Source of the DNA: Rosellinia necatrix
Lineage: Eukaryota > Ascomycota > Sordariomycetes > Xylariales > Xylariaceae
DNA length: 64,000 nt
Reading direction: 5' to 3'
Assembly: GCA_021209875.1 (NCBI GenBank)
Contig: JAGYVD010000002.1
Coordinates: forward strand, 1 to 64,000
Under the pieces are notes generated by a model. It made no database searches. It was not told the origin of the DNA and worked only from the letters and a program-made list of their open reading frames with translations. Made by a program: the position numbers and the translations under genes. Below, one piece after another: positions 1-64,000 of the stretch (position 1 is the stretch's first letter; each line of letters opens with the position of its first letter).

Positions 1-212
1 AACCCTAACCCTAACCCTAACCCTAACCCTAACCCTAACCCTAACCCTAACCCTAACCCTAACCCTAACCCTAACCCTAACCCTAACCCTAACCCTAACC
101 CTAACCCTAACCCTAACCCTAACCCTAAAACCCTAACCCTAACCCTAACCCTAACCCTAACCCTAACCCTAACCCTAACCCTAACCCTAACCCTAACCCT
201 AACCCTAACCCT
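1..212. repeat. telomere repeat array (CCCTAA)n
   Basis: About 35 uninterrupted CCCTAA units, i.e. TTAGGG read toward the left end, so position 1 is at or near a chromosome terminus. One variant unit, CCCTAAAA, lies at 123-130. The array stops at 212 and passes directly into a short GC-rich stretch (213-250) and then AT-rich subtelomere. Confidence 0.98.
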
Positions 213-5094: not shown

Positions 5095-7403
5095 TAAAGA
5101 TAATATTTATAATATTTAAAACATTATAGTTTTAAAATAAAATAAAAGCAATTAAAAATTATAAATTATAAATAAATATTATTAATAAGTTTATATTTTT
5201 TTATTTATAATTTAAAAATAATTTTAAAAATTATATATAAAATTCTTTTTATAATAAAAAACTATAATAAAAATTAAAAATAGTTTAACATATTATAATT
5301 AATAAATAAAGTTTAATAATTATTTAATTTTAATTTATTATATATTAAAAATATATTTTAATATTATAAATATATATTTAATATTATATAACTAAAATAT
5401 ATATTATATTATAATATAACTATAAGAAATTATTTAATAAAAACTTTTAGTTTTAAAGTTTTAATAATTTAAATCTTTTAAATATAATAATAAAACATAA
5501 TTTTATAGTTTTTATATATAAATATAAGTTATAAATTTATATGCTAATAATATAAAGTTCAAATTTTTATATAAAAAAAGTTAAATATTATTTTAAAAAA
5601 TATATAGATTAAAATTAATAAAATATTATTATATAATAAAATTTAAAATATTAATTATTAAAAAATCAAATAAAAAAATGCATAAAGTTTTATAAATTAT
5701 ATTATTTTATATTTAAACTAAATATTAAAAAAAATATTTTATAAAAATGTTATAAAAATAGTTATAAATAATTTATAAAATTAAAAAAATTTATAAATAT
5801 TATTAATAATAAATAGTTTTTATTATTTATTATTTATTTTATATATAAAAATATAATATATAAAATTATAATTTATAAATTCTTTATTTATATGTTTTAA
5901 TTAGTTTTTATATAATTTTATTAATAAATATTTTAAAGTTTATTAAATTATTTATTTATTTAAAATAAAACATTTAAATTTATAATAAAAAATATAAAAT
6001 TAAATATTATTAAACTAAAAACTATAAAATTATTTTAAAGCTTTAAATATTTTAATATAATTAATTTATACTATTAAAATTAAAACATAATAAAATATAA
6101 AAATATTAAAATTATACTTTTATAAAAAAATTTAAAAATATTTTTATAAAGTTTTTTTAATATTATTAATAAAATAAATAAAAAATTAAACAAACAATTA
6201 TTAAAAAGTTTTAATTTATTTTAATATTTTAATATAAAACTAAAACTTTAAAATATTTATAAAACAAAATGTTTATAATTATTATAATTTTTTATTATAA
6301 AATAAAATAATATATATATTATAAAGTTTAATTTATTAAAATTATATTTATTTATTAATATAAATTAATTATATTTTAACTTTATTTTAAAAACTTTATA
6401 GTATTTTTTATTTTTATATATATTAAAACATATATAAACTAAAATATTTTATATATAATAATTTTAGTTTTATATTTTTATTTTGTTTAATTATTAAATA
6501 AATTGTTATAATTTATTATATAATTATTTAAAACTTTTAAATTAAAAGCTTATAAAAAAATAATATTATATATAATATATTTTAATATTATTAGATTTTA
6601 TTGTTTATATTAATTTATTAATATAATTAATATTATAATAATTTAAAAAAATAAATATAAAAGAATAAAAATATTTTAAAGTTTTATATAATAATCTAGC
6701 AAAAATAGCAAATTATAGGCTGAAAAAAAGACTTGCTATGCTATCTAGATAAAGGCTGTCTAAAAATAGCTAGTAGACTATTTTTATCTTATTTATTATG
6801 GGCCTGGCCAGGCTTTGCAGGCCTAGCCTAGCCGGCCTAGCCTAGCCTAAAGTAGGTCTTTTAAACACTTTTTACTTGTTTATATTATAAAAGAAATATA
6901 TTATATTTAATATTATTAGTTATTTTATTATAAAAGTTTATAAAAAATATAAGTTATTTATTTTAAACTTATTTTTTATTTAAATTAATTAATAAAATTT
7001 ATAACTTATATTTAAAACTTTTAATAATTATTATTTATATATATATAATATTATTATATAAATAGTTAAAAATAATTAAATTGTTATTATTATATATATA
7101 AAATTTTATAATATTAATATATTTATTATAAACTAATATATATAAACTAATTATTATTTATATAAATTAAACTTATTTTTAATATTTATATTAAATTAAA
7201 ATTTTAATAAACAAAAGTTTTTTGTTTTTATTTTTTATATAAGTTATAATTTAAAATTAAACTTTTAACGTTTTAATTAAAATAAATATATAATAAATTA
7301 AGATATTATAAATATAATTATTAATTGTTTTATATTTTATTATATAAATTTTAAAATATAATTATAAATTTAATATTTTAACTATATAAATATTTATATA
7401 TAT

Positions 7404-7663
7404 TATAAAAATAAGCAAAAAATACTAGGCTTAGCACTATTAGTTGCTCGACTATAAGATTAAATAAAATAGCAAAAGCTATTTTAGGCTAAGTTTACTT
7501 AAGCTAGGCCTACTTATTTATATTAGTAAATAAAGTTTTAAAACTATGCTTAAAATTTAATAAGTTTTATTATTAATATATATATATTATTATAATATAA
7601 ACTAATATCTTATAAATACAGCTATTTATAACTTTATATTTTTAATAACACTTTTATATTTAT
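7404..7663 (-). mobile_element. solo LTR, family A, inverted copy
   Basis: Reverse complement of the family A LTR: AAGCAAAAAATACTAGGC at its left matches the inverted 3' end of the other copies, and CTATTTATAACTTTATA near its right matches the inverted 5' end. The outer boundary on the right is approximate because of small indels; no target duplication was identified. Confidence 0.6.
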
Positions 7664-8250
7664 TAAAAAAAATTAACAGTTTATATATAAAAATAGTTTT
7701 TTTATTATATATAATTAAAATAATAAAACTTAATATAAAAGCGTTAATATATAATTAATAAAATTAAGCAAAAATATTTTTGCAAACGCTTCTTATAATT
7801 AAATAAAATTTCAAAATAATATAAAAACAAATTAATATTATTTAAAAAATAAATATTAATTAAATAATATATTTAAATATATTTAAACATTTTAATTATA
7901 AATATAATAAAATTTATAATTTATTATTTAAATAATATTAATATTAAAATAAATATAATATAATTATAATTAATTTTACATATTGTTTAAATTTATATAT
8001 ATATATATTTATTTAATATTTATATGTTATATTATTTTTAAGTTTAATTTCTTATAATTATTTAAATAATAATAAATTTTTAATAGATTAAATAAAATAT
8101 ATTAATATACTTAAAAAATTAATATAATTTATATAAAATATATAATTTATTATATTTTTTATAGCTTTAATCAGATTTATTTTTACATTTTATATTTACA
8201 ATATAGTTTTTTATTTTTAGCTTTTAACTAATAAAATTAATTTATACCTT

Positions 8251-61323: not shown

Positions 61324-62418
61324 CTATCCAACACTGTAATTTCCTCCGACGCTGAAATTGCCTAAGTTCTGGACGCCCCGGCCGTGAAATACCATGCCAC
61401 CTATCACCCGTGGTCCGGGCGAATCAGCCGGCTCGGCTTCCACGGCCTCGGTTTCCACGGCCTCGGCTGCTGCAGCCTCCTCGGGGTCGATGTATGACAG
61501 GAGCTCCTTGGCGCAGGCCGCGGCGGCGGCGGAGGCGTAACGCTGCCAGCCCTGCGCCTTGTGCGCGTCCGCATAGTCGGATATGCCGCGGATGACGAGC
61601 GCCTCGTATTCGGTCATCAGACCTGCCGCTTCCATCTCAAAACAGAGCACGGGATAGCCCACGCGACGTACGATGTCGTCCCTCGCCGCCGCGTCTTTGA
61701 TGACGCTGTCGCCCGAGGCGATCAGCCCGTAGTGAATCTCGGGGCCCTCGGACAGACGCGGCTGTCGCCGGATGGGCCGGCGAAGACCGCTGTGTACGGC
61801 GCGCGTTAGGGCGTTGGGCGAATGCTGGTAATCCGCAGGGAAGAGGAGGTCGGCTTCGGACGGCTTTTTGTATATTGCCGTACCTGGCCATCTCTTGAAC
61901 ATAATTTCCAAGTACTCTCCAATCTTCTTGTCTCGGCCTATATGATCGGATTTCATCTTTTGAGCGGCGTTCATGAGGAGTGTAGGTGGTTGGCGAATAC
62001 CGCCCTTCATCTCAAACCCTGAGCTCGTCTGTTTCCCTAAATCGTACTGAACGACGCCCCCATGTCGTCCTTCCGGCATGCTAATGACTACATCACCTAG
62101 GCGGATATCGTTGTCGCCGCTGGGAACTCCACCGCCGATCCCTACGAACAGTCGCCACTTGATCGAAGGAAATGAGCGCGACATGTTTGTGGCAACAGTT
62201 GCGGCGGCACCCTTCCCCTGCTGACCCGGTAGGCATGCTAGAACCACATTATGACCTTGCATCTTGCCGAGTGTATAACAATTGGGGTCCCTCGGTTGAG
62301 TTTTCAGGTTGGGGTGCTCCTCATCCAGCATATAGCGAACAGCATTCCTTTCTACGTCCATGGCGCATAATATGGCAACCGTATAGGAAGCGTGGCTATT
62401 CTGGGTTGAGGGCGTCAT
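61324..62418 (-). CDS. PNP/UDP-phosphorylase-domain effector with C-terminal amyloid-like motif
   Basis: Single exon, 364 residues from the ATG at 62418; an in-frame ATG at 62514 adds 32 residues, but relatives begin near SYTVAILCA, so the inner start is preferred. The nucleoside-phosphorylase fold is marked by YTVAILCAMDVE, FVGIGGGVPSG (phosphate/nucleoside loop), HYGLIASGDSVIKD, CFEMEAAGL (purine-site Glu) and IRGISDYAD. A low-complexity Ala/Glu linker follows (about 310-338). The last 22 residues hold HGRGVQNLGNFSVGGN, which repeats the start of the neighbouring NLR. In fungal immunity-like systems PNP_UDP proteins act as NLR effectors or effector domains. The inferred role is to be triggered by motif templating from the NLR. 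Cytosolic, no signal peptide. Confidence 0.88.
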   Translation of the reverse strand: MTPSTQNSHASYTVAILCAMDVERNAVRYMLDEEHPNLKTQPRDPNCYTLGKMQGHNVVLACLPGQQGKGAAATVATNMSRSFPSIKWRLFVGIGGGVPSGDNDIRLGDVVISMPEGRHGGVVQYDLGKQTSSGFEMKGGIRQPPTLLMNAAQKMKSDHIGRDKKIGEYLEIMFKRWPGTAIYKKPSEADLLFPADYQHSPNALTRAVHSGLRRPIRRQPRLSEGPEIHYGLIASGDSVIKDAAARDDIVRRVGYPVLCFEMEAAGLMTEYEALVIRGISDYADAHKAQGWQRYASAAAAACAKELLSYIDPEEAAAAEAVETEAVEAEPADSPGPRVIGGMVFHGRGVQNLGNFSVGGNYSVG

Positions 62419-63256
62419 TGTGATGCGTTGTATATGAAACTGTACAGGCTCGTTTGATGGGATGCAGTAAAGCTCCTTTGTTATTAATATGGCCTTAAAA
62501 TCCGAGAATTTCACGATCTTTATAGAGCGGACGAGTTATCTATCTAGGAAGCTCCATGGAAATGTAGAGAAGGCAAGTGGGTCTAGTGATTCGAAGGCTT
62601 TGGTCAACGACTGGATGGCTACATCATGAGTGCTCTCGGATCTGGGAGTTGGGCATCAATAGATCTGAACATATGTGTGCTGGCACAGAGCGACCCCGCG
62701 TATCCTGCCGTGTCTGCTTGCCGTTCAGCACAGGGTGCAGACGAGGCTATTATGTATGCATACCATTCTGACCAGTTGCGGCTGATCGCTGTGCAGTAGT
62801 CGTGATTAGCATTGCGACCCTCGCTGGATGGGCTTGGGGGCCGGACTCCAAGAACCAAACTACACAAATATAGATACTTCTCCAACCAATCAATATTATT
62901 AACGTGTACTCCAGCATAAAAATATTCAGCGCGGATGTGAGCAATGCGCGCGAGAGAGGGGGTTGGCGGCAATCTTGATTAGCAGCTGCTACAGGGAGGC
63001 GGGGTATGAATGCAAAACACTCTCTCTCTTTCGCCCAACGGTTGCTGTTTCGGCAACTAGGATAGCTCTATGGCGCTATATACGGACTTCTAGGCCCGTC
63101 CTGCCCCCCCTTTTTCCGTCTCTGAGGGCGCATTGTTGGCTCTGCTTCACGGGGGTTCAGCTTCGATACTAGTTCTTGGAAAAGAAAAGAAAATAGTCTC
63201 TGATTGGCAGCGTTCGAGTGACGGGTGAAGCAGGCACTACCCACCTGTTCGGCAGC
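62419..63256. promoter_or_regulatory. divergent intergenic region of the effector/NLR pair
   Basis: About 840 bp between the two start codons, presumably holding both promoters. Short frames on both strands are without resemblance. No motif singled out. Confidence 0.5.
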
Positions 63257-64000
63257 ATGGAGCTTCATGGTCAGGGGATTCAGAACTCTGGCATCTTCAA
63301 CGTCGCTGGTGATATTAAAATCGGTATGCCGCCATAGAGACAACACCCTGCAGAAGCTGACAGCTGGGAAGCTGCCACACATACAGACAACGATACTCTT
63401 CTAAAGATACGGTTAACCGACCCTCTAGACGACAAAGCCCGCATCGAAGAGCAGAAAGGTGGCCTGCTCTACGACTCGTACAAATGGATCTTCAAACATG
63501 AAAATTTCCAAAAATGGCGTGACGGCGAGGGGAACCAACACCTCTGGATTAGAGGTGACCCTGGCAAGGGGAAGACGATGCTGCTTTGCGGGATCATCGA
63601 CGAGTTGAATAAAGCGGAGAGGAAGGACTGGAACATTGCCTACTACTTCTGCCAAGGCACCGACGACAAACTCAACAAAGCCACCTGCGTACTACGAGGG
63701 CTTATATTTTCGTTGTTATCGCTGCAGCCTAGGCTCCTAGAGTGTGTTCGAGAGCAGATTGACGGGGCAAGTGGAGACATGTTCCAAGACGCGAACGGTT
63801 GGGCCGCGCTGTGCAGGATATTCCGTCGCCTAATGGAGGAAATAGAGAAACGAAAGGAAACGGCTTGCGTTGTTGTGGATGCACTGGACGAGTGCATGGA
63901 AGGTCAGGATGGCCTTTTGAGATGGATCGCGAGCCTGTCGTCGTCGTCCATCAAAGTCCTTGTCTCCAGTCGCAATTGGCCTTCAATCGAGAGCGGACTC
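63257..64000 (+). CDS. NACHT NLR (STAND) protein with N-terminal amyloid-like motif, cut by the window end
   Basis: Exon 1 is 63257-63323 and exon 2 starts at 63387. The 63-bp intron has donor GTATGC, branch CTGAC (about 63356) and acceptor CATACAG, and it removes an in-frame TAG at 63335. Exon 1 encodes only the motif MELHGQGIQNSGIFNVAGD. Exon 2 gives TDPLDDKARIEEQKGGLL (the usual lead-in of fungal NACHT proteins), Walker A GDPGKGKTM, Walker B VVVDALDEC and the sensor-like VLVSSRNW. The C-terminal repeats (ankyrin, WD or TPR) that would recognise the ligand lie beyond 64000. There is no separate N-terminal effector domain, as in NLRs that signal through a short amyloid motif to a partner protein. 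Confidence 0.88.

What the first reader, a model, noticed from the sequence alone, without database searches (positions are those of the whole stretch)
61324..64000. Effector/NLR gene pair sharing a sigma-like amyloid signalling motif
The C-terminus of the PNP_UDP protein (HGRGVQNLGNFSVGGN) and the N-terminus of the divergent NACHT protein (HGQGIQNSGIFNVAGD) match at nine of sixteen positions with conservative changes at others, although the proteins are otherwise unrelated. Fungal NLRs of the HET-S/NWD2 and sigma (sesA/sesB/PNP cluster) kinds activate partners by amyloid templating through just such short Gly/Asn/Gln motifs. A PNP_UDP effector that carries its motif at the C-terminus and sits head to head with its NLR would be a self-contained programmed-cell-death or allorecognition module, placed next to a transposon nest near a telomere, where such genes diversify.
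Basis: partly seen in the sequence, partly recalled or inferred. Interest (0 to 1): 0.92.

Follow-up and report, generated by a model that had tools for sequence, protein, structure and literature searches.

The report
Fungal death-gene pair, receptor broken
A fungal enzyme and its neighbouring immune receptor share a short prion-like motif of an already described type (PUASM), so the pair most likely belongs to a known kind of cell-suicide circuit, but in this genome assembly the receptor gene is broken while the enzyme gene is intact.

Summary
A PNP_UDP protein (61324-62418, minus) ends VFHGRGVQNLGNFSVGGNYSVG; a NACHT receptor starting 838 bp away (63257, plus) begins MELHGQGIQNSGIFNVAGDIKI. 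Nine of 16 positions match; 0 of 20,000 shuffles reach the score. The motif is not sigma but fits PUASM, described in 2022 with the same effector and receptor types (PMC9815663). A profile of 95 other PNP C-termini gives the receptor motif 28.5 bits; the best of 10,000 shuffles gets 9.2. Twenty other PNP/receptor pairs on one contig were collected, six with consecutive locus tags. Cognate motifs are more alike than re-paired ones (0 of 5,000), but a partial Mantel test was not significant. Beyond the window the receptor is broken: an in-frame TAG at C2:64229-64231 and a frame change near C2:65371. The effector frame is intact. Verdict: new member of a known kind, with a probably dead receptor, in Rosellinia or a relative. 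Two more PNP/NLR neighbours with similar termini in this genome are a lead only.

The parts
61324..62418 (-). PNP_UDP effector gene, 364 aa, one open frame
   Evidence: ORF and translation; PF01048 52.2 bits; best hit 90% identical over 100%, Rosellinia necatrix
61507..62382 (-). MTAN/PNP-fold nucleosidase domain; residues aligned with catalytic Glu and Asp of MTAN kept (AMDVE, FEMEAAG, RGISDYAD; catalytic roles recalled)
   Evidence: phmmer to MTAN structures; model, pTM 0.80; Foldseek: futalosine hydrolase and MTAN, E about 5e-12
61327..61392 (-). PUASM-type motif at the C-terminus of the effector (VFHGRGVQNLGNFSVGGNYSVG), short form
   Evidence: modelled with low confidence (residues 321-364 pLDDT under 50)
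62419..63256 (.). 838-bp divergent intergenic region between the two start codons
63257..63323 (+). NLR exon 1, encodes PUASM-type motif MELHGQGIQNSGIFNVAGDIKI
   Evidence: same motif at the N-terminus of NLR relatives found with a query that lacked exon 1
63324..63371 (+). 48-nt intron, GTATGC...GCTGAC...AAG, contains an in-frame TAG that splicing would remove
   Evidence: the four orthologue alignments printed have no residues here
63372..64000 (+). NLR exon 2 as far as the window reaches: NPHP3_N/NACHT NTPase. Outside the window the frame stops at C2:64229-64231, resumes in the same frame, and changes frame near C2:65371 (WD40 part to about C2:66843)
1..212 (.). telomere repeat (CCCTAA)n: the window is the end of a chromosome

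Best explanation
The locus is a PUASM effector/NLR pair in a Xylariales fungus (Rosellinia or a close relative). In the working form of such a pair (inferred from published PUASM work and from orthologues annotated as whole genes), the WD40 part of the NLR senses a cue, the NACHT domain oligomerises, the N-terminal 22-residue motif nucleates a beta-arch amyloid, and this templates the same motif at the C-terminus of the PNP_UDP protein. Clustering switches on a nucleosidase that would exhaust a purine nucleotide pool (ATP is the best guess) and kill or arrest the cell. In this genome the effector frame is intact and the receptor is disrupted, so the circuit is probably not switched by its own NLR here.
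For: Shown: motif pair far above chance. A loose form of the motif pattern in 96 of 120 listed PNP relatives and the motif at the N-terminus of 14 of 120 listed NLR relatives (10 by pattern, the rest by eye, used), found with a query that lacked it. Twenty other PNP/NLR pairs on the same contig (same organism and contig length), six with consecutive locus tags. Cognate motifs 53.8% identical, non-cognates of the same clade 46.5%; 0 of 5,000 within-clade re-pairings reach the cognate mean, 2 of 5,000 in Xylariales alone. Published PUASM features met: core pattern (short form), PNP_UDP partner, NACHT/WD40 receptor, neighbouring genes. MTAN-type fold. Receptor frame split in two with 15 of 15 orthologue queries. 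Inferred: amyloid templating for these two peptides, nucleosidase substrate, cell death.
Against: Distances between PNP motifs and between NLR motifs are not correlated once divergence of the PNP domain is allowed for (partial r 0.06; 1,686 of 5,000 within-clade and 1,348 of 5,000 free permutations reach it). Motif length or the residue after Q differs between partners in several pairs (for example X. scruposa, F. falciforme, F. anthophilum, I. destructans, Nemania FL0916). Both window motifs are two residues shorter than the published core (GxF instead of GxGxF); the trailing GGN/AGD is only close to the reported GND/ARD; there is no His in front of the first F on the PNP side. The PNP protein lacks two cysteines (206, 210) that are nearly invariant in its relatives, so the effector may be drifting too. 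No expression data.
Confidence: 0.85

Rival explanations
1. Both genes work; the stop and the frame change in the NLR are assembly or sequencing errors, or are handled by splicing.
For: The rest of the NLR frame is well kept: 48-60% identity to 15 orthologues across the first piece, GC and RIP indices of normal coding sequence.
Against: Two separate lesions. All 15 orthologue queries give one alignment that runs through the stop, and the four printed have no gap there. At the frame change the two pieces meet or lie a few bases apart in some orthologues (P0250 0, P0247 6, P0248 15 bases), so an intron would remove residues that align.
Confidence: 0.2
2. The shared motif is a sigma (sesA/sesB type) motif.
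For: Short Gly/Asn/Gln-rich motif in an effector/NLR pair.
Against: No match to Pfam NACHT_sigma for either peptide, while the model does match two other NLR N-termini, though below its curated cut-off. Sigma is about 40 residues, built of repeated submotifs, and found in SESA, SESB and HET-eN in the passages seen of PMC5485727. The motif fits PUASM better.
Confidence: 0.02
3. The PNP protein is an ordinary purine-salvage enzyme and the motif has another role, such as oligomerisation without amyloid.
For: Fold and sequence are closest to MTA/SAH nucleosidases and futalosine hydrolase; the substrate cannot be read from sequence.
Against: NLR with the cognate motif on the same contig in 20 other genomes or strains; a PUASM peptide pair from Colletotrichum formed amyloid and the PNP-side one behaved as a prion.
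Confidence: 0.05

Closest known systems
PUASM effector/NLR pairs (Wojciechowski et al. 2022, PMC9815663; abstract and sections 19, 24, 32, 40, 55 read)
   Same: PNP_UDP effector with motif at the C-terminus, NACHT-WD40 NLR with motif at the N-terminus, neighbouring genes, F.G.G.Q..G core, Glu in front of the NLR-side motif
   Different: Core shortened by two residues (also in 9 of the 12 other Xylariales PNPs compared); the reported His in front of the PNP-side motif is not there (a His follows the first F/L on both sides instead); receptor frame broken in this genome
Sigma motif system of Nectria haematococca (SESA, SESB, HET-eN; passages of PMC5485727)
   Same: One NLR and neighbouring effectors share a short amyloid-type motif
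   Different: Different motif, different effectors; PF17106 does not match here
HET-S/NWD2 (HRAM) and HELLP/SBP/PNT1 (PP) systems (passages of PMC5485727; HET-S/NWD2 details partly recalled)
   Same: Same logic: NLR motif templates a motif in the effector
   Different: Pore-forming or lipase effectors; other motif sequences; no Pfam match here (no positive control run for these models)
Bacterial PNP-family ATP nucleosidase immune effectors (stated in a passage of PMC10197012; the system name Detocs is recalled)
   Same: PNP_UDP-superfamily nucleosidase used as immune effector
   Different: No amyloid link known to me; substrate of the window protein untested; PADLOC matches only a PN-superfamily 'Effector' model (42.5 bits) and PDC-M60C (36.8 bits)

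Membership tests
PUASM | Core pattern FxGxGxQxxGxGxF | tested here: met
   Met in its short form: PNP side FHGRGVQNLGNF, NLR side LHGQGIQNSGIF have the G, G, Q, G and final F; first F is L on the NLR side, as in P0144 and P0151; the full GxGxF end is absent
PUASM | Motif at the C-terminus of a PNP_UDP protein | tested here: met
PUASM | Motif at the N-terminus of a NACHT or NACHT-WD40 NLR | tested here: met
PUASM | Effector and NLR genes neighbours (within 20 kb) | tested here: met
   838 bp between start codons
PUASM | Trailing GND (PNP side) and ARD (NLR side); often His (PNP side) and Glu (NLR side) in front | tested here: inconclusive
   GGN and AGD: close, not identical; Glu present on the NLR side, no His in front of the PNP-side F
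PUASM | Peptides form amyloid; effector-side fusion behaves as a prion | not testable with these tools
   Published for a Colletotrichum pair
Sigma motif | Match to the sigma profile PF17106 | tested here: not met
   No match at E up to 10; two control NLR N-termini matched at E 7.8e-4 and 0.23, both below the curated cut-off
HRAM / PP | Match to HET-s/HET-S or Ses_B Pfam profiles | tested here: inconclusive
   No match, but no positive control was run for these short models
Fungal NLR (NACHT-WD40) | NACHT NTPase followed by WD40 repeats in one open frame | tested here: not met
   Both domains present, but one in-frame stop and one frame change divide them; member by descent, not as an intact gene
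PNP-type ATP nucleosidase effector | MTAN/PNP fold with catalytic residues | tested here: met
   the catalytic roles of Glu and Asp are recalled, in keeping with PDB titles of Glu12Gln and Asp197Asn mutants
PNP-type ATP nucleosidase effector | Hydrolyses ATP and kills or arrests the cell | not testable with these tools
   Needs purified protein or expression

The most novel reading that the evidence does not exclude
The locus is a natural 'effector kept, sensor lost' allele of an amyloid death circuit: the first open frame of the receptor encodes PUASM plus NACHT without WD40, next to an intact effector, and the genome runs three PNP/NLR pairs side by side, each with its own matched motif (PUASM, a PUASM-like variant with L for F and V for Q in both partners, and a third motif). 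That would make Rosellinia a place to test how parallel amyloid wires stay insulated and what an orphaned effector does, for example whether it makes the strain a one-way partner in allorecognition. Against it: the PUASM-like PNP motif scores almost as well with the window receptor motif (30) as with its own (32).
Probability: 0.15. Interest if true: 0.6.

Novelty: new member of a known kind. Interest (0 to 1): 0.35.

Why it matters
It places a single-reader guess about an amyloid motif in a named, experimentally backed class, and adds Xylariales pairs with a short form of the motif. The cognate-match result, if it holds on more pairs, is sequence evidence that the two motifs evolve together, as templating requires; the partial Mantel result warns that this is not yet firm. 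A broken receptor beside an intact death effector would be a natural experiment on whether such effectors are safe without their switch.

Tried and rejected
Sigma, PP, HET-s: Pfam scans of both peptides at E up to 10 gave nothing; rejected for sigma with a weak positive control, left open for the others. RIP as the cause of the receptor damage: the 32-60.4 kb block is heavily RIP-like (CRI +0.69 to +0.80 in 4-kb steps) but the PNP and NLR genes are not (CRI -0.47, -0.33, -0.25), so heavy RIP of the genes is rejected. An intron to explain the stop or the frame change: not supported, because it would remove residues that align to orthologues. Loss of WD40 repeats: in 11 of 15 orthologues the two aligned pieces leave 103-187 residues between them, but repeat number varies in this family and the shorter P0124 (902 aa) leaves none (three others start their second piece further on), so I do not count this as damage. 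Other PUASM-NLRs in the same genome: the next best NLR locus (C4:3334090-3335589, 39%, six stops) has a different N-terminus; only 50 of 173 candidates were scored, so absence is not shown. Species: only inferred from a 90% identical Rosellinia necatrix protein. Whether orthologous pairs are also head to head could not be seen (protein hits carry no strand). Partial Mantel test of co-evolution was negative. I did not find this Rosellinia locus described in print; the searches were (listings only).

Rows dropped and choices: for the PNP-side HMM, 24 of 120 listed hits did not fit the loose pattern (listed; a few, such as P0016 and P0096, do show the motif by eye) and P0002 was left out. The co-evolution test used 20 outside pairs chosen by eye by organism and contig length, plus the window; where a contig held more than one NLR hit (Ilyonectria destructans) I took the one with the motif, so motif presence on both sides was a condition of entry. 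Eight candidate pairs (marked '?') were left out: seven because a shared contig could not be shown, and Colletotrichum jinshuiense because the tags on the shared contig are far apart (000341/000560). In one search the genome search gave 17 PNP matches; I looked at the C-termini of only some. The peptides of the two further pairs were picked by eye, which their shuffle counts do not allow for.

Full report
What is there. The window is the end of a chromosome: it begins with CCCTAA repeats (1-212) and is contig C2:1-64000 of a 49.1-Mb genome in 12 contigs. The closest protein to the PNP gene is from Rosellinia necatrix (90% identity over the full length; 39 of 364 residues differ), so the fungus is Rosellinia or a near relative; the species is not settled. 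AT-rich, RIP-like DNA fills 32-60.4 kb. The pair lies just outside it, next to a class II aminoacyl-tRNA synthetase gene (C2:67.4-69.2 kb; that it is glycyl is my recall).

The observation. The PNP_UDP gene (61324-62418, minus, 364 aa) and the NACHT gene (ATG at 63257, plus) diverge from an 838-bp gap. The quoted 16-residue stretches match at 9 positions. The similarity is well beyond chance: local score 56, reached by 0 of 20,000 shuffles. Profile tests agree in both directions. A profile of 95 PNP-side motifs gives the receptor peptide 28.5 bits (best of 10,000 shuffles 9.2; best of 106 other NLR N-termini 2.2). A profile of 14 NLR-side motifs gives the PNP C-terminus 22.9 bits (best of 10,000 shuffles 11.6). 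Six-frame scans of the window with the same profiles find only these two places below E = 4.

What the motif is. In 2022 Wojciechowski and colleagues (PMC9815663; abstract and sections 19, 24, 32, 40 and 55 read) described PUASM, core FxGxGxQxxGxGxF, associated uniquely with PNP_UDP effectors, with NACHT or NACHT-WD40 NLRs in Pezizomycotina. They report GND trailing on the PNP side and ARD on the NLR side, and in front of the motif often His on the PNP side and Glu on the NLR side. The window pair shows FHGRGVQNLGNFSVGGN and (E)LHGQGIQNSGIFNVAGD. The fit is close but not complete: the core is two residues shorter, the tails are GGN and AGD, Glu is there on the NLR side, and there is no His in front of the PNP-side F. 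The short form is common in the family: among the 13 Xylariales pairs compared, 10 PNP motifs are short, the window's included. Pfam's sigma model (PF17106) does not match the window peptides but does match two other NLR N-termini, below its cut-off, so 'sigma-like' is very likely the wrong label.

Relatives. A search with the PNP protein gave 5,736 hits at E under 1e-10 among 7,997 scored. Of the 120 listed, 96 carry the loose motif pattern in the last 60 residues. A search with the NACHT part only, lacking exon 1, still returned NLRs whose N-termini carry the motif (14 of 120 listed; 10 by pattern, the rest by eye). A second search with a Xylaria NLR N-terminus returned more. Twenty outside pairs lie on contigs of the same organism and length. 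In six the locus tags are consecutive: Xylaria hypoxylon g7893/g7892, X. grammica g5703/g5702, X. bambusicola 001811/001810, Lasiodiplodia mahajangana g2275/g2276, Trichoderma virens 004679/004678 and Fusarium falciforme 015957/015956. For the others adjacency was not shown.

Do the two motifs evolve together? With 21 pairs (window included), cognate motifs are 53.8% identical on average and non-cognate motifs of the same clade 46.5%. None of 5,000 within-clade re-pairings reached the cognate mean; in Xylariales alone 2 of 5,000 did. Examples are QS/QS in one X. bambusicola strain where another has QN/QN, and QQ/QQ in Nemania NC0429. Against this, some pairs differ in motif length (X. scruposa, F. 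falciforme, F. anthophilum, I. destructans) or in the residue after Q (Nemania FL0916, F. falciforme), and the two distance matrices are not correlated once PNP-domain divergence is removed (partial r 0.06; 1,686 of 5,000 within-clade and 1,348 of 5,000 free permutations reach it). I read this as suggestive, not firm.

The effector. Sequence and fold point to the MTAN/PNP nucleosidase family (pTM 0.80, mean pLDDT 74.6). The residues aligned with MTAN catalytic Glu and Asp are kept (AMDVE, FEMEAAG, RGISDYAD; roles recalled). Residues 321-364, with the motif, have pLDDT under 50, as expected of a tail that orders only on assembly. A loop (204-217) differs at 13 of 14 positions from the R. necatrix protein, and two near-invariant cysteines (206, 210) are missing, so some drift is possible. 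That PNP_UDP proteins act as ATP nucleosidases in bacterial immunity is taken from a passage of PMC10197012 and one of PMC12881547. For this protein it is inference.

The receptor. The window ends inside the NACHT domain. The genome continues (L007). The frame meets a TAG at C2:64229-64231, resumes in the same frame, and changes frame near C2:65371; the WD40 part continues to about C2:66843. All 15 orthologues used as queries align as two pieces in two frames, the first running through the stop; the four alignments that I printed have no gap at it. In 11 of the 15 the pieces leave 103-187 WD40 residues between them, but repeat number varies and P0124 leaves none, so I do not count a loss of repeats as shown. 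Hence the receptor is, in this assembly, a pseudogene by a premature stop and a frame change. I name no change that would undo this. RIP indices of both genes are those of normal coding sequence.

Mechanism, with steps marked. Shown: matched motifs, recurrent pairing, nucleosidase-type effector, broken receptor. Shown by others for a related pair: amyloid formation by both peptides and prion behaviour of the PNP-side one. Inferred: ligand sensing by WD40, oligomerisation by NACHT, templating of the PNP tail, activation by clustering, nucleotide loss and cell death, and that all this is idle here for want of a receptor.

Novelty and score. The class is named, its logic is known and its amyloid nature was tested. 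This is one more member, useful for the short motif form and for the natural loss of the receptor. Interest 0.35. The most novel reading, three insulated PNP/NLR circuits in one genome with one orphaned effector, rests on two further neighbour pairs seen in passing. Their motif matches are weaker (15 and 125 of 20,000 shuffles, peptides picked by eye), one PNP motif scores nearly as well with the window receptor as with its own (30 and 32), the PUASM profiles match that pair only on the PNP side (E 0.002; NLR side E 2.8), and neither pair was checked in other species.

Noticed in passing
G000:C1:1093499-1098062 (L036:3924-4709 and 5702-8062): A second PNP_UDP/NLR-like neighbour pair, same strand: PNP ends SVFNGPITGRNVIAGTSMSGGVMNMNFS, and a reading frame just upstream of a TPR-repeat gene (no NB-ARC match at E 1e-6) gives CSLFGAISAGNTLAGNHFGGQTNITFNG. 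Local score 43, reached by 15 of 20,000 shuffles, peptides picked by eye. Motif class not identified.
   Followed up: partly
G000:C1:322786-327526 (L032, L033): A third, head-to-head pair: PNP ending VVLRGQGNVNVGSGSISIGRNQTF and a NACHT-ankyrin NLR whose upstream ORF reads IELSGYGIVNNDSRLEIGRDFKSK. PUASM-like, with L for F and V for Q in both partners. Score 32 (30 with the window receptor motif), reached by 125 of 20,000 shuffles; PUASM profile E 0.002 on the PNP side, 2.8 on the NLR side.
   Followed up: partly
window 32001-60400: Long AT-rich block (GC 0.12-0.18) with strong RIP-type dinucleotide indices, ending about 900 bp from the PNP gene; a second such block at 1-8 kb behind the telomere.
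   Followed up: no
window 61768-61809 (PNP residues 204-217): Thirteen of 14 residues differ in one loop between the window PNP protein and the Rosellinia necatrix protein P0002, which differ at 39 of 364 overall; a local hypervariable or converted stretch.
   Followed up: no
G000:C4:3333557-3335589 (L013, L015): A WD40 NLR relative with several in-frame stops and a less negative RIP index (-0.08), a decayed paralogue with a different N-terminus.
   Followed up: no
L010:3673-7677: PNP_UDP ORF followed directly by a 925-aa TPR-repeat ORF on the same strand; it looks like a single-gene PNP-NLR, but NB-ARC was not matched at E 1e-6.
   Followed up: no
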